A stretch of 64,000 nt of DNA, taken from NCBI GenBank assembly GCA_027488845.1, contig JAIYBC010000047.1, positions 1 through 64,000 on the forward strand, in the 5' to 3' direction. Below, in pieces: positions 26,364 to 37,898 of this stretch; position 1 is the first letter of the stretch, and every line of letters begins with the position of its first letter. The position numbers were made by a program, and so were the translations under genes. The stretch is from Verrucomicrobiales bacterium. GTDB lineage: Bacteria > Verrucomicrobiota > Verrucomicrobiia > Limisphaerales > UBA9464. The notes beneath the pieces were generated by a model. That model did not search any database. It worked only from the letters and a program-made list of their open reading frames with translations, and was not told the origin of the DNA.

Positions 26364-27083
26364 TCAGCCCCACTTCTCGAGCTTCATCTGCTCCTTCGGC
26401 AGTCCGAGGTCGTGCAGGACCAGGTGTTCCACCGCGTTCACCATCTCGTTGGTGCCGCAGGCGTAGAACACCGAATCCGCCGGGTTGTCGACGAAGCTCT
26501 TCACCCACTCCGGCGTGATGCGGCCGCGACGGCCGGTCCACGGGTCCTCGGGGGCGAGGCGGGTGCAGGTGACATGGAACTGGAAGCGCGGGTTCTTCGC
26601 GGCCAGTTCGCGGAACTCCTCGGCGAAGATGATGTCGTTGGTCGTCCGGACCGTGTAGAGGATGGTGATCCGGGTATCGAGGTTCCGTGCAGTCGCCTCA
26701 CGGGCGAAACCGCGGAACGGCGTGACGCCAGAGCCGCCGGCGACGCAGATGAGGTGCTTGCCCGGGGGATCGAAGACCGGGAGGAACTTCCCGACCGGCG
26801 GGATGACGAACATCTTGTCCCCGGCCTCCAGCCAGTCGACGACGCTCGTGCCCATCTTGCCGTCGCGCTTCACGGTCACCTCGTAGTGGCCGCGGTCGAG
26901 GGCCGAGGAGCTCAGCGAGTACGCGCGCTTGTACTTCGTCTTGTGGGGCCAGTAGACGGTGATGAACTGGCCGGTCTTGAAGTCCGGCTCGTATCCGGCG
27001 GGCCACTGGAACCGGACGGTTTTCACGTCGGGAAGCTCCATCTTCACCGACTCGACAAGCATTTCAGCGATGACCTTTGACAT
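26364..27083 (-). CDS. Ferredoxin reductase-type FAD/NAD(P)H oxidoreductase
   Basis: This 239-residue flavoprotein of the ferredoxin-NADP+ reductase superfamily has an FAD-binding domain (about 1-100, RAYSLSSS at 53-60) and an NAD(P)-binding domain (about 110-235, GGSGVTPF at 116-123, FYACGTNEMV near 207). It ends in EKWG. No 2Fe-2S ferredoxin domain is attached, so it would pass electrons to a separate carrier. Its ATG lies 20 nt inside the upstream hydrolase gene. As last gene of the minus-strand run that opens with a CarF/PEDS1-like desaturase, it could supply that enzyme's electrons; this is inference. Confidence 0.83.
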   Translation of the reverse strand: MSKVIAEMLVESVKMELPDVKTVRFQWPAGYEPDFKTGQFITVYWPHKTKYKRAYSLSSSALDRGHYEVTVKRDGKMGTSVVDWLEAGDKMFVIPPVGKFLPVFDPPGKHLICVAGGSGVTPFRGFAREATARNLDTRITILYTVRTTNDIIFAEEFRELAAKNPRFQFHVTCTRLAPEDPWTGRRGRITPEWVKSFVDNPADSVFYACGTNEMVNAVEHLVLHDLGLPKEQMKLEKWG

Positions 27084-27957
27084 GTTCGGGTTCGTTCCCG
27101 GGGGAACGCGGGGACGATCCTGACGCAAGGCGGTTCGGAGTAAAGCCGGTGTTTTCCCGGAGCCCACCGGCGTCGAGGATTTCGGCGAGCCAGGCGGCGG
27201 CGACGGCGGGTCGGTTGAACAGGACCGCGTGGTCGGTGTTGACGAGCCGACACGGTCCAATTCGACCCGGGCAGTGGCTCCGCAGCCATCGGTCCACCGA
27301 CCACCAAGGAACGACCAGATCCCAGAACCCGCTCAGTTGGTGCACCGGGATGGAGGTGTTGGCCGCGGTGGGGCGGAGGTCTTCGTCGAGGATCATCCGG
27401 AGACGTCGGCTCATCGCCAGACGGTCGCCGTTCCGTCTCCGCTCTGCGACGAAACGGCGGATCGCCTCCCGCCTCCCAACCCAGGATTCGCCGATCCACG
27501 GAGCGATCCGTGGGAAGAGCAGGACCATGGCGGCGAGCAGGGGCGACGCGGTGCCGAATGGGAATCCGCCTGTCAACCGGACCGCCCATGGCCACGGATG
27601 CGACACGAATCCCCCGGCGAGACACAGGCGCTCGGCCTGGAAGCCGGTTGGTGCTGCGCGGAGGATGGCCCAGGCGACCTGGGACCCAAACGATTCCGCC
27701 AGGAGCGTCCCGCGTCGTATTCCGGCTTCCTGCAGCGTCCGGATCACTGCGGTGGCCAAACCGTCCAGCCCGTCATCCTGGTCTCTGGGATAGGCCACCT
27801 CGACGATCCGGAACCGGACCGCAAGCCGTGCACGCAGGCCGCCGAACAGCGTGCAGTCCCCATGCAGGCCCGGGAGGTAGACCACGGTGGCCGCGTTCTC
27901 GGGACCCGAGACTGTGCATCGGACCTCACGGTCGGAGGCGGTGTCGTGGACGCTCAT
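27064..27957 (-). CDS. Alpha/beta hydrolase
   Basis: This 297-residue alpha/beta-hydrolase-fold protein has an oxyanion region YLPGLHGDC near residues 31-39, a nucleophile elbow ESFGS near 82-86 and a late NTDHAVLF with the probable catalytic histidine. It has no signal peptide, so it is probably cytoplasmic. The chosen ATG (27955-27957) overlaps the stop codon of the upstream lipase-like gene by 4 nt, and the 3' end overlaps the reductase start by 20 nt. The substrate is unknown; an ester or lipid is plausible from its neighbours. Confidence 0.72.
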   Translation of the reverse strand: MSVHDTASDREVRCTVSGPENAATVVYLPGLHGDCTLFGGLRARLAVRFRIVEVAYPRDQDDGLDGLATAVIRTLQEAGIRRGTLLAESFGSQVAWAILRAAPTGFQAERLCLAGGFVSHPWPWAVRLTGGFPFGTASPLLAAMVLLFPRIAPWIGESWVGRREAIRRFVAERRRNGDRLAMSRRLRMILDEDLRPTAANTSIPVHQLSGFWDLVVPWWSVDRWLRSHCPGRIGPCRLVNTDHAVLFNRPAVAAAWLAEILDAGGLRENTGFTPNRLASGSSPRSPGNEPEHVKGHR

Positions 27958-28625
27958 TCCACCTGGGTCTCCCGGCGCCCTTGTCGGAGGAACCGCACGG
28001 TGACGTCGAAGACCTCGCGATCCCACGGCAATGCGGTGTGGCAGGTCCGCACCGAGTGGTGTGAGGTCATGCCAACGAGTCGGGTCGACTCCACGCTCAC
28101 CCGGCCGTCATGCGGTTTCGGCAGGGGCGAGACGAACGGGTGCGGTGGACGCGTCCCCGCGACGACGAGCAGCGGGAAGTCGGCCGGTGGCAGGCTTCGC
28201 GCGAAGGAATCCGGACCGGTGCCCAAGGCGACGAGGTTCGGTCCGGCGACCGCGCGGACCAGGGCCGACCGCGACCAGAAGTCGGCGGCCTCGCTGCCTT
28301 GGTTCGGCGGACCCAGCATCACCACCTGCCCGAGGCGATCGCAGCCATGGAGTTCCAGGTGCCGCCGCAGGACGAGGGCGCCCATCGAGTGGGTGACGAA
28401 GTGGATCTTGCCACCGGCAGGCGGGATCCGTTTAGCCAATTCACGTCCGAGGAGCCGCGAGCCGATCTCCTCCAACGGCATCCGGACCGAAGGGTAGCCG
28501 ATGGACACCACCTTGAATCCGGAACGCCTCAGCCTTCCGGCAAGGCCGGCCAGATGCATCCGGCCAGACCACCAGCCGTGCAGCAGCACGACCGTTTCCG
28601 TGGTTTGTTCCGAAGGAGTTTGCAT
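27954..28625 (-). CDS. Lipase-like alpha/beta hydrolase
   Basis: This is a protein of about 223 residues with the LLHGWW oxyanion motif near residue 13 and the elbow THSMG near 80, as in LipA/EstA-type acylhydrolases and PGAP1-like esterases. A late SHHSVRT segment near 200 may carry the catalytic histidine. The ATG at 28623-28625 is chosen; a second ATG 27 nt upstream is possible. No signal peptide is seen. It overlaps the next hydrolase by 4 nt. In a phospholipid-remodelling operon a lysophospholipase or acylhydrolase role is possible but unproven. Confidence 0.7.
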   Translation of the reverse strand: MQTPSEQTTETVVLLHGWWSGRMHLAGLAGRLRRSGFKVVSIGYPSVRMPLEEIGSRLLGRELAKRIPPAGGKIHFVTHSMGALVLRRHLELHGCDRLGQVVMLGPPNQGSEAADFWSRSALVRAVAGPNLVALGTGPDSFARSLPPADFPLLVVAGTRPPHPFVSPLPKPHDGRVSVESTRLVGMTSHHSVRTCHTALPWDREVFDVTVRFLRQGRRETQVE

Positions 28626-28658
28626 CGGTGCGCGTCCGGGACGGCTTCCCACCCGCAG

Positions 28659-29987: not shown

Positions 29988-31157
29988 TCAGGCCGCGGAC
30001 CTCATGCTCCTGACGAGGGACCTGCGGTGTCGCTCGAGGTACCAGCCGAGGAGGATCAGCAGCAGGCCGGTGCTGACGAAGATCATTCCCGTGTCGGCCA
30101 TCGATCCGAAGAGCTGGAAGAGGGCGGCCAGGATCTGCACCGCGATGGCGACGATGGCGAGGTTCACGTGGAAGGCGCTGGACCGCTGGATCCCGACCTG
30201 GATCTGGACCAGGGAGACCGCGAACAGGACTGGGATGACGAGCCAGTGGGGTCCGATGTCGCCCCGTTGGTGGAAGGCGGAGTCGGATCCGGCGAGCAGG
30301 CCGGTCCAGCCGACGGCGACGACGACGACAAGTGCCCCGAACCACGCCATCCTCCATTTCGCGGGCATGCCGTCGACATTGCGGGCCAGCGCCGTGCCGA
30401 CGAGCGCCAGCGCCAGCGCGGCGACGGCCCCGGAGAGGATCCAGGCTCCCTGGGTCACCGCGGACTGCCCATAGAAGGCCCCGATCATCAGGGGCAACGA
30501 GGCGTGGTGGACGCCGAGCAGGCCGAACTTCTCCGTGGCCCCGGCAAACTCGGCGAAGGGTCCGCGTCGCAGCAGGCCGCCCAGTCCGACGAAGAGCACG
30601 CCGAGGAGCAGGTAGAACGAGCACATGCGGGCGCCGCCACCGAACCGGAGAAGTCCGTCGTCCTGGGTGAGTTCCATGCCAAGCCAGATTCCGAAGGTGG
30701 TGAGCGTGAGGATGTGGAGGGCCCTCGAGCGAAGGATCCAGGGGAGTGGAACCATGCCGGCAAGCCAGAGCAGCACCGCATCGGGAGCGCGGGAGCCGAG
30801 GTGGTAGATCTGCCCCACCAACGCGATGTTGGCGAGGAACAGCCCTGCGCCCACGAGGTGGAGGGTGGTGGCGATCGCGGGATGGTCGCCTCCCTTCCCG
30901 AGCCGCCATCCCAGGAAATGGGCGCCCAGCATCAGCAGGATGCCGCCGCCGATCTTGGGCGCCTTGGGAACCGAGTCCCAGTTGGCCGCCACGAGCAGCA
31001 CGGCGCCGCAGACGAACAGGATCCCCCCGAGGACGGCGAGGATCACGAGCAGCCGGTTGGATTCCCTGTCGAGCCGGTGGCGGTGGATGATGAGATCGTG
31101 CTGGAGCCGGGTGATCAGCCCTTCCTGCAGCAGTTGCTCGATGTCGGATCTTCTCAT
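29988..31157 (-). CDS. DUF2157-domain polytopic membrane protein
   Basis: This 389-residue protein has a soluble N-terminal segment (1-40, RRSDIEQLLQEGLITRLQ) and about ten to twelve membrane helices, the DUF2157 layout. I chose the ATG at 31155-31157; the longer frame upstream enters the aas gene. Seven nt separate it from aas. It is the usual partner of the GDYXXLXY protein encoded next. Its function is unknown, but its place between Aas and the lipoprotein suggests an envelope role. Confidence 0.78.
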   Translation of the reverse strand: MRRSDIEQLLQEGLITRLQHDLIIHRHRLDRESNRLLVILAVLGGILFVCGAVLLVAANWDSVPKAPKIGGGILLMLGAHFLGWRLGKGGDHPAIATTLHLVGAGLFLANIALVGQIYHLGSRAPDAVLLWLAGMVPLPWILRSRALHILTLTTFGIWLGMELTQDDGLLRFGGGARMCSFYLLLGVLFVGLGGLLRRGPFAEFAGATEKFGLLGVHHASLPLMIGAFYGQSAVTQGAWILSGAVAALALALVGTALARNVDGMPAKWRMAWFGALVVVVAVGWTGLLAGSDSAFHQRGDIGPHWLVIPVLFAVSLVQIQVGIQRSSAFHVNLAIVAIAVQILAALFQLFGSMADTGMIFVSTGLLLILLGWYLERHRRSLVRSMRSAA

Positions 31158-31164
31158 GATGGCA

Positions 31165-33357
31165 TCAGGGGTTGGCGATGGACTCGACCAAAGCGCGGTG
31201 GTTGACCTTGCCGGTGCCGAGCTTGGGGATCTCGCGGACATGCCGCAGTTCGCGCGGCACGCAGAGGTTGGCGAGTCCCTTGGCGCGGACGACCTGGCGG
31301 ATCTCGTCGAGGGTCAGCTTCTCGGCATTGGTGATGGCGACGAGCTTCTCCCCCTTGTCCTCGCAGGCCACCGCCACGACCGCGACCTCGCACCGGAGAC
31401 CGTGTTGGGGGAACGCGCCGGCCAGGGCGTCCTCGACCGCGGTCAGGCTGACCATCTCGCCGCTGACCTTGGCGAAGCGCTTCATGCGCCCGAGAAGGAA
31501 GACGAAGCCGTCGTCGTCGATGCGGGCGAGGTCTCCGGTGTCGTACCAGCCGCCGTGCCCGCGGAACGTGGCGTCGGCGTCGGGGTTGAGGTAGCCGAGC
31601 ATCACGTTGGGGCCACGCACGAACAGGCGACCCGAGATGACGCGTCCGTCGGAAGCGTGTTCGCTGACGCCCTCCACGGGTTCCAGGCGCCAGGACATTC
31701 CCGGCATGAAGCGTCCGACGCTTCCGAACCGGGACTCGATGCGGTTGTTGGCGCAGAGCACGGGACTGCATTCGGTGGCGCCGTAGCCCTCGAGCAGGCG
31801 GATGCCGAACTTGCGGGCCCAGGTCTGGGCGGTGGCCTCCTGGACCTTCTCGGCTCCGGCGACGAGGTACTTCACGCTGCGGAAGTCGTAGGGAGCCGCC
31901 TTGCGGGCGTAGCCGTTGAGGAAGGTGTTGGTTCCGACCATCACGGTGCAGTTCTTGTCGTAGACCACCGCGGGGACGACGCGGTAGTGCAGCGGGGAGG
32001 GATAGAGGAAGGTGTAGAGCCCGCGGACGAGCGGCAGGAGCGTGCAGGCGGTGAGACCGAAGCTGTGGAAGAGCGGCAGGGCGTTGAAGAAGCGCTCGTG
32101 GTCGGTGATGTCCAGCGAGGCGTCCATCTGGCGGATGTTGGCCAGGAGGTTGGCATGGCTGAGGACCACGCCCTTCGGGACGCCCTCGGATCCGGAGGTG
32201 AACAGGATCACGGCGGGCCGGCGTCCGTAGGCGGCTCCGAGGTCACGTCCGCGGAACGTGCGACCGCAGGCGACGTGATTCCGCAGCAACGCGACGGCCT
32301 TTTCGGCCGCTGTGATCCGTTCGCGCACGTCCTCGAGGTGGTGGAACGTGATCCCGGCGGCCTCCATGGGGCCTATGTCGATCTTCGCCTTCTGCAGGAA
32401 GACTCGCGAGGTGACCACGTGGCGGAGCCCGGCGAGCCGGGCGCACTGCAGCATCACGGGTACGCCCGTGGAGAAGTTGAGGACCGCGGGGACGAGGTCG
32501 TTCGCCCAGAGCGCCAGCAGGGTGACGGGCATCCCGTTGACGTTCGGCAGGAGCACGCCGATGTGGGAGGAGACGGGATCGCGGCCTTCGGCGAAGCGCG
32601 GGCTGAAGTGGGCGAACTGCTGCGCGAGCAGCTCGGCGCCGACCATGAGGCGCCGGTAGGTCAACGGCTTCTGGTTGATGTCCTCCAGCACCTTCTTCCC
32701 GGGAAGCGTCGCGGCGGTCTCCGCGATGGCGGCGAGCACGGTCGAGGGGCCGAACTCCTGTTCGACCTCGAAATGCTGTTCGACCATGCGGTCGCGGAGC
32801 CAGGCCGTGATCCGCTGTCGGGCGACGGTGTTGGAGAGTTCCTTCAGCCGCGGGGCCTCGAGGACGGGGCTGAAGTGGGCGGTGACGGTCGGGAACCACC
32901 GGGTCCATCCGTCATGGCGGACGAAGGCGACTCGGCCGGCGTTCCGCAGGTGGCAGGTGACCACCTTCGCTCCGGTCTTGTGGATGAGGAAGCCGGTGCC
33001 GTCGAAGAGCTTCATCAGGCGCGCCGTTGCCGAGATCCGTCCCTCGGGGAACAGGACGAGGCGTCCGCCCTGGGCCAGGAACTCGGCCATGCGCTTCGCG
33101 GCGTAGGGCGAGGCGGGATCCACCGGGAAGGTCCGGCGATTGACCATGACCCGCCGATGGATCCAGCTGGTCTCGGCGGTGGTGGAGCTGGTGACGAAGC
33201 GCCAGTCGTCGTCGAGCACGGCACCGAGGAACGCCCAGTCGAGCCACGAGACGTGGTTGGGCAGGAGCAGCACCGGTCCAGGGGTGTTGAGCACGCCGGT
33301 GTTGAACGCGCGGAACCGGAAGCAGATCCGGAGCAGCAGTCGGAGCAGGGCCTTCAT
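31165..33357 (-). CDS. aas: Bifunctional acyltransferase/acyl-ACP synthetase (Aas-like)
   Basis: This 730-residue fusion has the same architecture and length as E. coli Aas (719). The N-terminal PlsC-type acyltransferase has HVSWLD (H35-x4-D40) and FPEGRIS (103-109). The C-terminal AMP-forming synthetase has TSGSEGVPKG (387-396), GYGATE and the YDTGDLAR motif. It would re-acylate lysophospholipids at the inner membrane using acyl-ACP made in situ. Translation is coupled to lnt by a 4-nt overlap (ATGA), and lplT lies just upstream, matching the E. coli lplT-aas pairing. Confidence 0.88.
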   Translation of the reverse strand: MKALLRLLLRICFRFRAFNTGVLNTPGPVLLLPNHVSWLDWAFLGAVLDDDWRFVTSSTTAETSWIHRRVMVNRRTFPVDPASPYAAKRMAEFLAQGGRLVLFPEGRISATARLMKLFDGTGFLIHKTGAKVVTCHLRNAGRVAFVRHDGWTRWFPTVTAHFSPVLEAPRLKELSNTVARQRITAWLRDRMVEQHFEVEQEFGPSTVLAAIAETAATLPGKKVLEDINQKPLTYRRLMVGAELLAQQFAHFSPRFAEGRDPVSSHIGVLLPNVNGMPVTLLALWANDLVPAVLNFSTGVPVMLQCARLAGLRHVVTSRVFLQKAKIDIGPMEAAGITFHHLEDVRERITAAEKAVALLRNHVACGRTFRGRDLGAAYGRRPAVILFTSGSEGVPKGVVLSHANLLANIRQMDASLDITDHERFFNALPLFHSFGLTACTLLPLVRGLYTFLYPSPLHYRVVPAVVYDKNCTVMVGTNTFLNGYARKAAPYDFRSVKYLVAGAEKVQEATAQTWARKFGIRLLEGYGATECSPVLCANNRIESRFGSVGRFMPGMSWRLEPVEGVSEHASDGRVISGRLFVRGPNVMLGYLNPDADATFRGHGGWYDTGDLARIDDDGFVFLLGRMKRFAKVSGEMVSLTAVEDALAGAFPQHGLRCEVAVVAVACEDKGEKLVAITNAEKLTLDEIRQVVRAKGLANLCVPRELRHVREIPKLGTGKVNHRALVESIANP

Positions 33358-34865
33358 TGGGAAATGGAAATGGGCTTGGGGCCGGTGCGGGCGGATCCCA
33401 GGGCGGAGAGTGCCAAACCGGTGGCGATCACGAGCCACGCCCCGGTGCAAAGCGGGGCGATCCAATGGTCGAGGGGACGCGGATTCGGCTTTTCCCGCAG
33501 GTACAGGGTCCCGGCCACGATTTCCCCTTGGCCGGGAATCGTCGTGGTACGTTCTAGGCCGCCGCGGGCGGAGATCAGCTGGGAGGGGCCTGAACTGGCC
33601 ACCCGGAGCACGGGCAGTTGGTACTCCGTCGCCCGTAACCGTGCCTGACGAGCATTCAGTCCGTGCTCGTAGGCGCCCCATTGCTCGACGTCCATGGTGG
33701 GGAACAGGAGGGCCCGTGCCCCCTGGCGAACCAGTTCATCGGAGACGCGCCGGTAGCTGGCGTCGTAGCAGATGCCGATTCCGATGGGGCCCCAGGGCGA
33801 GTTCCAGAGCCGTTGGGATTCCGCCGGAAGCCCGTCGTTGAAGAACTGGATCGGCTGGGACTTCGCCTGGGTGAACACCACGTCGCCATTGGTCCCGACG
33901 ACGAATGCCGTGTTGCGGAAGGCCGCCCCGGAGTCCTGATCCGGGGCTTGGGTCGGACGGAGAAGGGCACGGGACGAGGAGGCGCCGTTGCCCGGCGTGG
34001 AAGTCAGGAACTCCTTCCCGCCCGCGACCAGCCAGCGGGTGTGCAAGCGGCACCAGTTTCGGACGACCTCGGGAGGCTCGCCTTCGAAGGTGTACTCGGG
34101 CAGGACGATCAGTTCCACGGACGGGCGTTCCCGGATTGTCCGGTCGAGGGCCTCCATGAGTTCGGTCATCGAAGGGAACTCCAGTTGCAGGCCGGCGACA
34201 GCGACCGGGCGGTGGGGTTCGGGTTTGTCGATGCGGGGTCGCAGCATCGTGTCGACAACGAGCAGGACCCCGATTCCCACGAGGACGCCCAGGACGGCGA
34301 GGTAACCGCTCCGGAATCCGCGTTCGGCGATCCGCACCAGGGTTGCGGCGAGTCCGAACAGCGCGATGCCGGCACCGAAGACCCCGAGGTCGAGCAGCGG
34401 GAGGGTATCGGGCAGAACAGATCCCGCGCTCAGCCACGAGAAGCGGAGCCACCAGACCTCGCACCGGAAATACTCGATGCCGGCCCAGATCACCGGGGAA
34501 AGCGCGAGGCTCCAGGAGGTCCCGAGACGATGCTCCACATGCCACAGGGTGAGGGAGAACGCCGCGAGCCAAAAGGGGAGGATGAGCCAAAGGGGGATCG
34601 CCGCCGGCCCGAAGATGTTCCAGAGGAATCCCAGGTGGGGTGCGTAGCAGGCGACGCCGAGCCCCAGTGAGACGTAGAAGGCCATCCTGGCGGTGGGGAG
34701 GCGCCGGAGCAGGAACAGGCCGCCGAGGAACCCCAGCATCAGCACGGACATCGGGGGGGTCAGGAAGGCTGCGTGGAAGCAGGCGACGGCCCCCAGGAGA
34801 ACCGGCGTCCACGTCCGTCCACCCGGTGGGAGGGGCGCGGTGCCGATGTTTTGGGATGCGGTCAT
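33354..34865 (-). CDS. lnt: Apolipoprotein N-acyltransferase
   Basis: This 503-residue inner-membrane enzyme adds the third acyl chain to lipoproteins, taking it from phospholipid and leaving a lysophospholipid. About six membrane segments (20-210) precede a nitrilase-like catalytic domain (about 220-470) and a final membrane helix (about 475-495). The expected Glu-Lys-Cys triad is visible: E257 (LPEYTFEG), K335 and C366 (GIGICYDASY). The cysteine context CYD differs from the more usual CYE. It lies 28 nt downstream of lplT and overlaps aas by 4 nt. Confidence 0.87.
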   Translation of the reverse strand: MTASQNIGTAPLPPGGRTWTPVLLGAVACFHAAFLTPPMSVLMLGFLGGLFLLRRLPTARMAFYVSLGLGVACYAPHLGFLWNIFGPAAIPLWLILPFWLAAFSLTLWHVEHRLGTSWSLALSPVIWAGIEYFRCEVWWLRFSWLSAGSVLPDTLPLLDLGVFGAGIALFGLAATLVRIAERGFRSGYLAVLGVLVGIGVLLVVDTMLRPRIDKPEPHRPVAVAGLQLEFPSMTELMEALDRTIRERPSVELIVLPEYTFEGEPPEVVRNWCRLHTRWLVAGGKEFLTSTPGNGASSSRALLRPTQAPDQDSGAAFRNTAFVVGTNGDVVFTQAKSQPIQFFNDGLPAESQRLWNSPWGPIGIGICYDASYRRVSDELVRQGARALLFPTMDVEQWGAYEHGLNARQARLRATEYQLPVLRVASSGPSQLISARGGLERTTTIPGQGEIVAGTLYLREKPNPRPLDHWIAPLCTGAWLVIATGLALSALGSARTGPKPISISQ

Positions 34866-34893
34866 GGGAGGTAGGGATGGGTTCAGGGCCGGA

Positions 34894-36171
34894 TCACGCG
34901 GTGCGTTGGGGAGGGATCCGCAGCCAGGTGACCACTGCCATGGTGACCACCGCGAGAACCAGGAACACCCCTCCGGCGCTGATCCCGGCGGAGGGTGCCA
35001 GGGTGCAGAGGATCCCCGCGGCGGCCATGCCCACGTTGTCGCACAGGTTCTGCACGGCGATGGTCTTCCCGAGCTTTCCGGGATCCGACTCGGACTGCAG
35101 CGCGGCGTTGAACGGAATCAGGAAGAGCCCCGCGGCGACACCGGCACCGATCAGGAGCGTGACGATTGCCGGAAGCAGGACGAAGGAAACGGAACGGACT
35201 CCGTCGGGGCCGGTGGATTCCCAGGTGCGCCGTGCGATGTCCGGCAGCCCGAGCGGCCCGGCCGCGAAGAGAAGCAGGAGCATCCCGGAAAGGAACAGGC
35301 CGTGGGCCCTGGAATGCCGGAGGTCACCCACCGGATAGAGCAGTCCGGCAAGGATGCTGCCGACCATGACGCCGACGCTGAGCCAGAGTCCCAGGAGGGC
35401 TATCTGGGTGTTCGAGGGAAGCTTCAACACATTGAGGCCCCAGGCCGTGAAGTTGATCTTCATGGCGGCTCCGCAAACCCAGAAGAGGGCGGTGCCGACG
35501 AGCACCTTCGCGAGCCGTGGACCGCGGAACAGGTCCATGAGGTGGGTGTGGAATTCGCCCATGCTGCGACGCAGGACCACCGACGGGTCGTCGGGCGTGC
35601 GTTCCATCAGGAGATTCAGGAGGAAGGAAGCGCCGAACACCCCGAGGACGGTGGCGTAGCAGGTGGCGATCGGAAGTCGGTCCACCATCACGGAGCCGCC
35701 GACGGCGCCGACGAGAATGGCGACGAGCGTGAGGAGTTCGACGGTGCCGTTGGCCTTGACGAGGCGTTCCCGGGGAAGGATCTCGGGCAGGATGCCGTAC
35801 TTCGCGGGACCATAGATCGCGGCACCGATCCCCACGATGAAGTAGCCGGGTCCTTGCCAGAAGGGACCGTACCAGACGCTGAGTCCGCAAAGTGAAGCGC
35901 CGACGACCTTGAGGATGTTGCCCCCGGCGAGCCAGGCGGTCTTCGAGTAGCGGTCGTTGAGGAATCCGGCCAGGGGAGCCAGCAGGATGTAGGGAATGAA
36001 GAGCAGGCTCGAGTAGAGTCCGCTGCGCACCCGCAGCTGGTCCGGCGTGATGGAACCCGCCTGTTGCAGCAGCGTGAGCTGGCCGACGATCACCGCCAGG
36101 ATGGCGTTGTCGCCGAAGGCGCCGATGAACTGGCTCAACAGCAGGAGTGGGTAGTTGCGGGCGGATTTCAT
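34894..36171 (-). CDS. lplT: Lysophospholipid transporter LplT-like MFS protein
   Basis: This 425-residue major-facilitator protein has twelve predicted membrane segments. N-terminal features FIGAFGDNA (15-23) and GPAKYGILPE (about 120-130) are typical of LplT and related lysophospholipid flippases. The aas and lnt genes immediately downstream strengthen the assignment: LplT brings periplasmic lyso-lipid to the inner leaflet for re-acylation. It lies 18 nt downstream of the CarF/PEDS1-like gene. A generic MFS exporter is the alternative. Confidence 0.82.
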   Translation of the reverse strand: MKSARNYPLLLLSQFIGAFGDNAILAVIVGQLTLLQQAGSITPDQLRVRSGLYSSLLFIPYILLAPLAGFLNDRYSKTAWLAGGNILKVVGASLCGLSVWYGPFWQGPGYFIVGIGAAIYGPAKYGILPEILPRERLVKANGTVELLTLVAILVGAVGGSVMVDRLPIATCYATVLGVFGASFLLNLLMERTPDDPSVVLRRSMGEFHTHLMDLFRGPRLAKVLVGTALFWVCGAAMKINFTAWGLNVLKLPSNTQIALLGLWLSVGVMVGSILAGLLYPVGDLRHSRAHGLFLSGMLLLLFAAGPLGLPDIARRTWESTGPDGVRSVSFVLLPAIVTLLIGAGVAAGLFLIPFNAALQSESDPGKLGKTIAVQNLCDNVGMAAAGILCTLAPSAGISAGGVFLVLAVVTMAVVTWLRIPPQRTA

Positions 36172-36189
36172 GGGTCGTACGGCTCGGAG

Positions 36190-36792
36190 TCAGGCATGGG
36201 ACGCCATCCGGATCCAATCCGGAGGGGCGCCATGGCGGCGGTTGGAGGTGTCGATCCGGCGGCGCAGGTGGAAGAGCTTCCAGAGAAGGCATTCGAGGCG
36301 CGTCCAGAAGCGGAGGCGTTCGAGCACCGGGTTCAGGAATTCGGTGATCACGCAGTAGTGGGTGGACTTGGGATCAGTGTGGTGGCGGGCGTGATGACGG
36401 GCACTCTGGAAGACCTTCAGGTCCTGGAGAAGACTGATCCAAGGACCGTTCTCCCGTCGGCTGCGGTGCGCCCACTTGTGGATCTGGTTGGCGTTGCCCA
36501 CAAGGGCCGCGAACAGGACCGCCTGCCAGCCGAGGAACCCGGCCCACGAGGCGAACGCGAGGAAGACACCCGCGAGGATCATCTGGTCCCAGCACGATTC
36601 CCACCACGACTTGCGGGTGAAGTGACGGGGCAGGTGGTGGTGGAGGATGTTGGGTCTTCCGATCAGTCCGCCGACCACGGGGCTGTTCTCCCGGATGTAG
36701 GCGTCCTCGATCCAATGGACGAAGCCGACGACGAAGTCGGCGGCGAGGAAGATCCCTGCGGTCTCGAGCGGTACGGTGAACCATGCGTTCAT
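36190..36792 (-). CDS. Plasmanylethanolamine desaturase-like protein (CarF/PEDS1/TMEM189 family)
   Basis: This 200-residue membrane protein has the histidine pattern of the Lipid_desat (CarF/PEDS1/FAD4) family. DFVVGFVHW gives H26; HHHLPRH gives H51-H53 and H57; NQIHKWAH gives H105 and H109; LLQD at 121-124 precedes ARHHARHH, which gives H133, H134, H137 and H138. H145 and then NPVLERLRFW follow. CarF/PEDS1 are O2-dependent di-iron enzymes that make the vinyl-ether bond of plasmalogens. The ATG at 36790-36792 opens the family core. It is first in the run leading into lplT-lnt-aas. FAD4-type acyl-lipid desaturase is the main alternative. Confidence 0.82.
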   Translation of the reverse strand: MNAWFTVPLETAGIFLAADFVVGFVHWIEDAYIRENSPVVGGLIGRPNILHHHLPRHFTRKSWWESCWDQMILAGVFLAFASWAGFLGWQAVLFAALVGNANQIHKWAHRSRRENGPWISLLQDLKVFQSARHHARHHTDPKSTHYCVITEFLNPVLERLRFWTRLECLLWKLFHLRRRIDTSNRRHGAPPDWIRMASHA

Positions 36793-36890
36793 GACGCCGC
36801 ATGGTGTCGCCGATCCCACCGCGTTCCGGTGAATCGAAAAGCGTTCCCCCGACATTGATGCAGTCGATCCCGCCGGCGAGAGTCGCGTCG

Positions 36891-37898
36891 ATGGCTGTCC
36901 CGTCCATTCCATCCGCACGTCGAAGGATCCTGTTCCGTGTCGTGTTGGGGATCGCGGCCGTGGTGTTCCTAACCCAGTTGCTGGCGTGGAACCACGCCCG
37001 GAAGTTCATGGCCTTCTCGGATGTGGCAGTGCGGACACGTCCGCCCGAAAGCCTGGGCCGGCTGGAACGTCTCGGGGTCCTCGTTCGCGGTGTCGATTTC
37101 CCACGTCCAGGCAATCGTCGGACGCCCCGCGACCTCGGGTTGGAGTTCGAAACGCTCCAGATCTCCGCCTCGTCGGATGTCCTGCTCGAGACCTGGCGCC
37201 TCCCGGCACCGAAGGGCGGGCCCACCCGTGGCGTGATCCTGCTCTTCCACGGATACGGAGGGAGCAAGGACGGGCTGTTGGGAATGGGCGAGGCCTACCA
37301 CCGGATGGGACTCGAGGTCTGGCTGACCGATTTCCGGGGTGTCGGCGGTTCGAGCGGAAACACCACCTCCTTGGGCTACCACGAGGCGGAGGACGTCAGG
37401 GCGGTGTTCGCGGCCGCTTCGTCCCGTGCAGCGGGAATTCCCGTGTTTCTCCACGGGGCCTCGATGGGGGCGGCGGCCGTGATGCGGGCGGTTGGGGAAC
37501 TCGGTATCGAGCCGCGGGGAATCGTCGGCGAATGCACCTTCGCGCGCTTCCAGGACGCCGTGGAGAACCGCTTCGCCGCGATGGGGCTTCCGAGGAATCC
37601 GGGTGGTTGGCTGCTGACCTTCTGGGGAGGCCGTGTGGCGGGCTTCAACGGGTTCCGGCATCAGCCGGTGGGGTACCTTCGGCGGATCCGGGTCCCGGTG
37701 CTGCTGATCCACGGGGAACGCGACACGCGGGTGCGGTCGGAGGAAGCCGAGGAACTGAAGCGCGCGGCGGCAGGACCGGTCACGCTGGTGCGTCTGACGG
37801 ACTCCGGGCACGAAGGAGGGCTGGCGACTTCGCCTGCGGAGTGGACGAAGGCCGTGGAGGAATTCCTGTCCGGGACGCTCGCTTCGCCGAGCCGCTGA
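36891..37898 (+). CDS. Membrane-anchored alpha/beta hydrolase
   Basis: This is a protein of about 335 residues with an N-terminal membrane anchor (about 12-32), then an alpha/beta-hydrolase domain: LFHGYGG near 123, nucleophile elbow HGASMG near 191, and the late LTDSGHEGG histidine motif. It resembles YfhR/BEM46-type (bem46-like) hydrolases of unknown substrate. The start is uncertain: ATG 36891 is used, and ATG 36858 would add 11 residues. It diverges from the CarF/PEDS1 gene across roughly 65-100 nt and is followed after 46 nt by the exonuclease gene. Confidence 0.75.
   Translation: MAVPSIPSARRRILFRVVLGIAAVVFLTQLLAWNHARKFMAFSDVAVRTRPPESLGRLERLGVLVRGVDFPRPGNRRTPRDLGLEFETLQISASSDVLLETWRLPAPKGGPTRGVILLFHGYGGSKDGLLGMGEAYHRMGLEVWLTDFRGVGGSSGNTTSLGYHEAEDVRAVFAAASSRAAGIPVFLHGASMGAAAVMRAVGELGIEPRGIVGECTFARFQDAVENRFAAMGLPRNPGGWLLTFWGGRVAGFNGFRHQPVGYLRRIRVPVLLIHGERDTRVRSEEAEELKRAAAGPVTLVRLTDSGHEGGLATSPAEWTKAVEEFLSGTLASPSR

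What the first reader, a model, noticed from the sequence alone, without database searches (positions are those of the whole stretch)
36190..36792. Bacterial plasmalogen-type desaturase candidate
The 200-residue protein carries the histidine framework of CarF/PEDS1 (H26, H51-H53, H57, H105, H109, H133-H138) and the NQIHKWAH and LLQD blocks. CarF in Myxococcus and human TMEM189 make plasmalogens aerobically. A PVC homologue beside lyso-lipid recycling genes would point to aerobic ether-lipid synthesis in this lineage.
Basis: partly seen in the sequence, partly recalled or inferred. Interest (0 to 1): 0.7.

Follow-up and report, generated by a model that had tools for sequence, protein, structure and literature searches.

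The report
Unassigned bacterial membrane lipid desaturase clade
This lake-bacterium gene makes a real iron-dependent membrane lipid enzyme related to the animal plasmalogen-making enzyme, but it belongs to a separate, unstudied branch that lacks the plasmalogen-specific marks, so it more likely alters another membrane lipid.

Summary
In detail: window 36190-36792 (minus strand) encodes a 200-residue PF10520 (Lipid_desat) protein (E 1.9e-36) with all eight di-iron histidines and the catalytic aspartate (D30). The plasmalogen reading does not follow. The PEDS1/CarF-specific ninth histidine is K61; PEDS1's F118 is N48; N48 and a clade-specific E29 are invariant in 81 of 81 clade members. The clade is one side of a PF10520 tree (100/98), human PEDS1 and plant FAD4 lying on the other, though AU tests do not fix where those two attach. 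No AGPS-type or DUF2229 (PlsA-type) gene was found in its 95%-complete genome. AGPS-like genes occur in 6 of 7 Planctomycetota genomes with a full CarF-type motif (one as a fragment) but in 1 of 13 genomes with this clade. It sits 18 bp upstream of LplT-Lnt-Aas-like genes; LplT follows it in 13 of 15 nearest loci. Most likely it is a di-iron desaturase (or hydroxylase) of an intact phospholipid acyl chain; substrate and position are unknown. By-product: CarF-signature genes in Planctomycetota.

The parts
36190..36792 (-). Lipid_desat (PF10520) protein, 200 aa: eight-histidine di-iron lipid desaturase of an uncharacterised clade
   Evidence: AlphaFold2 model mean pLDDT 93.7
34894..36171 (-). 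LplT-like lysophospholipid transporter (MFS), 425 aa, 18 bp downstream of the desaturase
   Evidence: NF008397 LplT 203 bits, E 6e-60, below its 297-bit cut-off; MFS_1; gap read
33354..34865 (-). Lnt-like apolipoprotein N-acyltransferase, 503 aa
   Evidence: TIGR00546 69 bits, E 3e-19, below its 132.9-bit cut-off; CN_hydrolase
31165..33357 (-). Aas-like bifunctional 2-acyl-lysophospholipid acyltransferase / acyl-ACP synthetase (start is my choice: the ATG that overlaps the Lnt stop; the longest ORF starts at 33681)
   Evidence: NF005959 545 bits (cut-off 886), NF005291 712 bits (cut-off 1349); Acyltransferase + AMP-binding; ORF
26364..27083 (-). FNR-type flavin reductase (FAD_binding_6 + NAD_binding_1), candidate electron donor; near desaturase-LplT-Aas in genus mates, about 9 kb from the desaturase here
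   Evidence: (89.5% identical to a genus mate's gene), ORF; PDB nearest NqrF 1e-21
27954..28652 (-). alpha/beta hydrolase (lipase-like), part of the same cluster in several genus mates

Best explanation
The gene encodes a helical membrane di-iron enzyme that uses O2 and reducing power from a flavin reductase to desaturate an acyl chain of an intact membrane phospholipid, probably phosphatidylethanolamine and probably near the glycerol end of the chain, as PEDS1 and FAD4 both do. It is probably co-transcribed with LplT-(Lnt)-Aas, which by analogy with E. coli (recalled) return lysophospholipid to the inner leaflet and re-acylate it, so the modified chain would feed this remodelling loop. Shown: family, eight-His/Asp framework, high-confidence fold, tight gene order conserved in close relatives, separate clade, loss of the PEDS1-specific residues. 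Inferred: co-transcription, desaturation rather than hydroxylation, the substrate, the position, and the electron donor.
For: PF10520 E 1.9e-36. H26, H52, H105, H109, H134 and D30 in 81 of 81, and H51, H137, H138 in 80 of 81 rows. Model pLDDT 93.7; best solved match the fatty-acid hydroxylase Scs7p (Z 6.9, 152 residues aligned, rmsd 4.2; next Z 2.5; 239 chains compared). Aas-like follows LplT in 11 of those 13, the other two contigs ending first. An FNR-type reductase lies on the same contig in 10 of 13. Separate side of the PF10520 tree at 100/98. The known activities of both characterised branches act on intact phospholipids (PMC7149458, PMC9131029, passages).
Against: The lysophospholipid-gene context is local: 64 of 80 loci show no LplT-like hit, some on contigs that end soon after the gene, and two loci that branch beside the window protein in the tree (L026, L027) lack it too. 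In 26 of 80 loci a LysR-type gene lies near instead (one representative scanned). The FNR-type gene is not next to the desaturase in the window itself and was found in no locus outside the genus. Pfam FA_hydroxylase gives a weak hit (21 bits, below its 31-bit cut-off) and the structural best match is a hydroxylase, so hydroxylation is open. The own genome has two ordinary FA_desaturase hits as well. No biochemical evidence exists.
Confidence: 0.5

Rival explanations
1. Plasmanylethanolamine desaturase (CarF/PEDS1 function): it makes plasmalogens from alkyl-ether PE.
For: Same superfamily and eight histidines plus the essential Asp. P0002 is somewhat nearer to recalled human PEDS1 (32.8% of 186 columns) than to recalled FAD4 (26.8% of 194). 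The AU test does not reject PEDS1 next to the clade (p 0.364), nor the seven CarF-motif proteins next to it (p 0.326). H131A and F118A in mouse PEDS1 keep 7.4% and 6% activity, so loss is not absolute. One of 13 clade-bearing genomes (G348, locus titled Moraxellaceae) has a clear AGPS. Two modular FAR-domain proteins in the own genome could belong to an ElbD-like route, and Agps and ElbD homologues are reported in 43 of 270 Black Sea Verrucomicrobiota MAGs each (PMC11868695, passages).
Against: Ninth His is K61 here and His in only 12 of 81 rows; F118 is Asn in 81 of 81. PEDS1 held together with the Verrucomicrobiota rows (and L084) to the exclusion of the rest of the clade is rejected (p 6e-5). 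NF045946 70.5 bits against 240-263 for three Planctomycetota full-motif proteins. Plant and alphaproteobacterial homologues, which lack the ninth His, did not complement carF (PMC9131029). No AGPS or DUF2229 found in the own genome; AGPS-like in 1 of 13 clade genomes against 6 of 7 CarF-motif genomes. ElbD homologues do not prove ether lipids: Pontiella has them and no ether lipids were detected (PMC11868695).
Confidence: 0.12
2. A lipid hydroxylase (fatty-acid 2-hydroxylase-like or lipid-chain hydroxylase) with the same di-iron fold.
For: Best structural match is yeast fatty-acid hydroxylase Scs7p, Z 6.9; weak FA_hydroxylase Pfam hit, 21 bits; clade-specific E29 beside the essential Asp could alter the chemistry.
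Against: PF10520 fits far better (126 bits), and both characterised PF10520 activities are desaturations. Z under 8 may mean only a common arrangement (note).
Confidence: 0.2
3. Specifically a FAD4-type phosphatidylglycerol delta-3-trans acyl desaturase, that is, a bacterial functional counterpart of plant FAD4 (a special case of the best explanation).
For: Shares the absence of the ninth His with plant FAD4. The AU test does not reject FAD4 next to the clade; the held tree was 2.03 log units better (p 0.54).
Against: Only 26.8% identity to recalled FAD4, which keeps Phe where this clade has Asn. The free tree puts FAD4 on the other side of a 100/98 branch, but FAD4 is a long branch there.
Confidence: 0.1

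Closest known systems
CarF / PEDS1 (TMEM189), plasmanylethanolamine desaturase, PF10520
   Same: PF10520 domain, eight essential histidines, the essential Asp, NQxHKW(A/S)H and LLQD blocks
   Different: No ninth His (K61), Asn for F118, extra E29, shorter N terminus, 70.5 bits to the CarF model, no AGPS found in the genome
Plant FAD4 (delta-3-trans PG desaturase), PF10520
   Same: Eight histidines, Asp, no ninth His; acts on an intact phospholipid
   Different: Asn instead of Phe three residues before the HH pair, E29, low identity; no affiliation in the free tree (AU test leaves it open)
Planctomycetota CarF-motif proteins found here (L135, L138-L141, L143, L144)
   Same: PF10520, PVC superphylum
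   Different: They have the PFRxHHxxPxx(I/M)T(R/K)HDF(I/V)ETNG block, and 6 of their 7 genomes an AGPS-like gene; this protein and its genome have neither
Fatty-acid 2-hydroxylase Scs7p (PDB 4zr0)
   Same: Best solved structural match (Z 6.9, 152 aligned, rmsd 4.2), membrane histidine-metal lipid enzyme
   Different: 12% identity; different Pfam family

Membership tests
PF10520 Lipid_desat superfamily | profile match above the curated cut-off | tested here: met
   126.1 bits against 26.4
PF10520 Lipid_desat superfamily | eight conserved histidines and the essential aspartate | tested here: met
   H26, H51, H52, H105, H109, H134, H137, H138 and D30; each in 80-81 of 81 rows, aligned to recalled human PEDS1
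CarF/PEDS1 | ninth histidine (mouse H131, CarF H113) | tested here: not met
   K61; His in 12 of 81 rows
CarF/PEDS1 | phenylalanine F118 | tested here: not met
   N48, Asn in 81 of 81; Phe in 20 of 20 fetched Planctomycetota proteins. Recalled FAD4 also has Phe, so this does not separate PEDS1 from FAD4
CarF/PEDS1 | score above the NCBIfam CarF equivalog cut-off (NF045946, 500 bits) | tested here: not met
   70.5 bits; three full-motif proteins themselves reach only 240-263, so the cut-off is strict
CarF/PEDS1 | groups with PEDS1 in a tree | tested here: inconclusive
   Separate side at 100/98, but AU p 0.364 for PEDS1 held with the clade; one recalled reference
CarF/PEDS1 | makes vinyl-ether PE; complements M. 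xanthus carF | not testable with these tools
   needs bench work
CarF/PEDS1 | ether-lipid supply in the genome by AGPS (context, not strictly defining) | tested here: not met
   Only two FAD-oxidase_C proteins, nearest glycolate oxidase 1e-94 and LctD 2e-81 against AGPS 2e-27 and 1e-28; assembly 95% complete
CarF/PEDS1 | ether-lipid supply by an ElbD-type protein (context) | tested here: inconclusive
   One AMP-binding-ACP-FAR-domain protein and one ACP/FAR-domain protein on contig C40, no acyltransferase domain found in either
Plant FAD4 | groups with FAD4 in a tree | tested here: inconclusive
   Not in the free tree; AU p 0.54 when held together; one recalled, unchecked reference
Plant FAD4 | delta-3-trans 16:1 in PG | not testable with these tools
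   needs lipidomics
Fatty-acid hydroxylase (PF04116 / Scs7p-like) | profile match above cut-off | tested here: not met
   21 bits against 31; fold match Z 6.9

The most novel reading that the evidence does not exclude
A third functional branch of the PF10520 di-iron desaturases, spread by record titles over Verrucomicrobiota, Gemmatimonadota, Acidobacteriota, Bacteroidota, Pseudomonadota and Planctomycetota, mostly in metagenome-assembled genomes. It carries a changed second sphere (HWxED, PNxxHH) and makes an undescribed head-group-proximal modification of bacterial phospholipid acyl chains. In the window's genus and close relatives it is wired into lysophospholipid re-acylation.
Probability: 0.4. 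Interest if true: 0.65.

Novelty: new variant of a known kind. Interest (0 to 1): 0.45.

Why it matters
In the papers seen here PF10520 has two characterised activities, both unusual and both near the glycerol backbone. A bacterial branch found in several phyla, with the metal site intact but both PEDS1-sensitive residues changed, is a good place to look for a third lipid product. It also warns against annotating such genes as plasmalogen synthases from the histidines alone. As a by-product, Planctomycetota genes with the CarF/PEDS1 motif, 6 of 7 accompanied by an AGPS-like gene in the genome, make the question of aerobic plasmalogen synthesis in the PVC superphylum directly testable elsewhere.

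Tried and rejected
Solved-structure search by sequence: no PF10520 relative found (P0002, none at E up to 1; profile A1, two indolepyruvate decarboxylase chains at E 3). Foldseek against PDB: nothing at E <= 0.001, 47 rows at E <= 10, all unrelated-looking; no stearoyl-CoA desaturase or PEDS1 structure appeared, which shows nothing. Plasmid search for named relatives: no match with P0002 or P0003. Rfam on the window: none. Promoter scan 31000-37200: 0 found; terminator-like 5 found, 2.6 expected. M. xanthus and Leptospira CarF could not be reached: the one genome-contig scan returned neither among its 80 loci.

Considered and rejected: H53, H57 and H133 as part of the motif (variable); the desaturase as the sole unsaturation enzyme (two FA_desaturase hits in the own genome). 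AU tests kept open several alternatives that the free tree disfavours: target+PEDS1 p 0.364, target+FAD4 p 0.54, the seven CarF-motif proteins with PEDS1 as one clade p 0.487, target+seven CarF-motif proteins p 0.326, the same plus PEDS1 p 0.21.

Rows dropped: the 81-row residue counts keep all rows, damaged ones included. For alignment A3 and the fold, L077 (stop or short) and ten near-copies (93% or more identical) went out, then L060 and L096 (odd read-through or frameshift), L090 (H51N) and L059 (left out by oversight): 66 rows. L077, L060 and L096 were set aside before the alignment. The tree used 37 rows of the clade out of 83 available (P0002, 80 loci, L103, L104), chosen by hand for spread, plus 27 others. 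Only 20 of 33 Planctomycetota PF10520 hits were fetched, the best-scoring, so the 16-of-20 ninth-His count is not a phylum rate. In the scan, 80 of 115 relatives were kept. The AGPS test examined every PF02913 hit listed for the 13 clade genomes; of the 7 CarF-motif genomes four weak hits were not fetched (one in G590, one in G724, two in G737). Genus membership of loci was taken from equal contig lengths with genomes.

Full report
What is there. The minus strand of window 36190-36792 encodes a 200-aa protein with Pfam PF10520 Lipid_desat at 126 bits, E 1.9e-36, and a weak FA_hydroxylase hit below its cut-off. The own genome (G000, 5.39 Mb, 95% complete) holds one copy. The nearest named record is a pond Verrucomicrobiales MAG (98% identity); the title 'Akkermansia muciniphila' on some near records is a record label. 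One search matched 180 stretches, of which 115 encode relatives; the best 80 were kept.

Residues. Published work (PMC8960569: outline and passages; PMC7149458: passages; PMC9131029: outline, passages, section 6 part 1 of 2 and section 10) gives eight histidines essential in mouse PEDS1 (96, 121, 122, 187, 191, 215, 218, 219), essential D100, F118 with 6% activity left when mutated, and H131, found in PEDS1, myxobacterial and Leptospira proteins but not in plants or Alphaproteobacteria, and needed for CarF function (7.4% left in the mouse enzyme). In the window protein the eight are H26, H51, H52, H105, H109, H134, H137, H138, and D100 is D30. Over P0002 and the 80 loci these are kept in 80-81 of 81. 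The F118 counterpart is N48, Asn in 81 of 81. The H131 counterpart is K61: across 81 rows N 25, L 22, K 15, H 12 and seven others. E29, beside D30, is Glu in 81 of 81 (Ala in recalled PEDS1, Ile in recalled FAD4). The alignment between the HH pair and K61 has no gap against PEDS1.

Controls within PF10520. Of 343 Planctomycetota genomes, 33 carry PF10520. In the 20 best-scoring loci fetched, F118 is Phe in 20 and the ninth residue is His in 16 (R 2, K 1, Q 1). Seven (L135, L138-L141, L143, L144) carry essentially the whole PEDS1 block. Three of these seven (L135, L138, L139) score 240, 241 and 263 bits against the CarF equivalog model NF045946, and L146, with the ninth His but not the full block, 211. 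The window protein scores 70.5 and eight other clade members 71-107. None reaches the 500-bit cut-off. Four of 19 genomes of the window's own genus (G001, G003, G009, G015) have a second, CarF-like PF10520 protein with Arg at the ninth place; the two scored, L002 and L004, gave 189 and 194 bits. The window genome does not have it. The window-type gene is in 14 of 19 genus genomes. In evenly drawn samples PF10520 was found at E <= 0.001 in 3 of 288 genomes of the own phylum, 4 of 190 of L101's class, 3 over the cut-off, and 3 of 369 of L092's class, 2 over the cut-off, the centre genome included each time.

Tree. Sixty-four rows, 202 columns: the 37 clade rows are one side of a branch at 100/98, and in 100% of 200 bootstrap trees. 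Recalled human PEDS1, recalled FAD4, the CarF-motif proteins and the second Verrucomicrobiota type lie on the other side. This is a split, not a rooted clade. Approximately-unbiased tests do not reject PEDS1 (p 0.364) or FAD4 (p 0.54) attached to the clade, nor the seven CarF-motif proteins (p 0.326; with PEDS1 p 0.21). They do reject PEDS1 held with the Verrucomicrobiota rows and L084 alone (p 6e-5). So it is a separate branch, with sister group unresolved.

Fold. AlphaFold2 with 66 sequences: mean pLDDT 93.7, pTM 0.88. Foldseek found nothing significant in PDB. VIA-align, comparing 239 chains, gave yeast Scs7p fatty-acid hydroxylase at Z 6.9 over 152 residues, rmsd 4.2, next Z 2.5. This fits a membrane di-iron lipid enzyme but does not separate desaturase from hydroxylase, and a Z under 8 may mean only a common arrangement.

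Neighbourhood. On the minus strand: desaturase, 18 bp, LplT-like, 28 bp, Lnt-like, then Aas-like with overlapping ends, if its start is at 33357. L026 and L027, which branch in the same six-row group of the tree, have no LplT-like gene in reach, so the order is kept in 13 of these 15 nearest loci. Three more loci have it (L046, L052, L061; 16 of 80 in all), L046 and L052 with the Lnt-like gene as in the window. In 10 of the 13 genus loci an FNR-type flavin reductase lies on the same contig, in 8 of them with at most one gene between it and Aas; the other three contigs end first. Its window copy is at 26364-27083, 89.5% identical to a genus mate's, nearest PDB chain NqrF 1e-21, with cytochrome b5 reductase and oxygenase reductases further down. 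Elsewhere the context is different: a LysR-type gene near the desaturase in 26 of 80 loci. The lysophospholipid link is therefore real but local.

Ether-lipid supply. The own genome has two FAD-oxidase_C proteins; both are nearest to glycolate oxidase or LctD, not AGPS. DUF2229 (PlsA/Ger-type, assignment recalled) was not found. Two long proteins with a FAR-type domain lie at the start of contig C40: AMP-binding + ACP + NAD_binding_4, and two ACP + NAD_binding_4, neither with an acyltransferase domain found. They could be part of an ElbD-like or a natural-product pathway and keep the question open. As a control, AGPS-like proteins with an S-H-(H/Q)-H-G-x-G motif occur in 6 of 7 CarF-motif Planctomycetota genomes (in G737 as a 207-residue fragment; none in G664) and in 1 of 13 genomes with the window's clade (G348, locus titled Moraxellaceae). 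For the control type the PDB evidence is close (L176: AGPS 7e-42, D-lactate dehydrogenase 8e-40), so 'AGPS-like' is all that is shown; for G348 it is clear (AGPS 1e-71, next kind 2e-21). A paper seen by passages (PMC11868695) reports Agps and ElbD homologues in 43 of 270 Black Sea Verrucomicrobiota MAGs each, so other members of the phylum may have such genes; it also notes that Pontiella, with ElbD homologues, showed no ether lipids.

Verdict. The window gene is a member of PF10520, not of the CarF/PEDS1 subgroup by the residues that mark it, and not shown to be FAD4. The best reading is a di-iron desaturase of an intact phospholipid acyl chain, tied in this genus and close relatives to lysophospholipid recycling. 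Eight literature searches (listings, with PMC11868695 and PMC12456178 also by passages) listed no paper on this branch in the held library. The 2022 review states that true CarF homologues beyond myxobacteria had been reported only in Leptospira (PMC9131029 section 10).

Noticed in passing
L135, L138, L139, L140, L141, L143, L144 (Planctomycetota genomes G564, G590, G737, G695, G724, G710, G664): Proteins with essentially the full CarF/PEDS1 motif including the ninth histidine; 6 of the 7 genomes also hold an AGPS-like gene, one as a fragment. These are better candidates for aerobic plasmalogen synthesis in PVC bacteria than the window gene.
   Followed up: partly
L002-L005 (genomes G009, G001, G003, G015 of the window's genus): A second, CarF-like PF10520 paralogue with Arg in place of the ninth histidine; 189-194 bits to the CarF model for the two scored.
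   Followed up: partly
window 33354-36171 against L023 8622-9974: LplT differs sharply (62% identity) and no hit to the Lnt-like gene appears in a relative whose desaturase is 98% and Aas 89% identical, while L025 shares the window's LplT type (94%): the LplT-Lnt block may have been replaced.
   Followed up: no
L129 3-3431 and 3440-7087 (own genome contig C40): Two adjacent modular proteins: AMP-binding + ACP + thioester-reductase-type domain, and ACP domains + the same reductase type; possible natural-product or ElbD-like genes.
   Followed up: partly
26 loci of cluster c1, such as L056, L059, L062, L065, L067-L069, L098: A LysR-type gene near the desaturase, divergent in those named, suggesting substrate- or condition-dependent control (one representative scanned).
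   Followed up: no
L068, L072, L103 desaturase C termini: Cysteine-rich tails after the PF10520 domain in some clade members, absent from the window protein.
   Followed up: no
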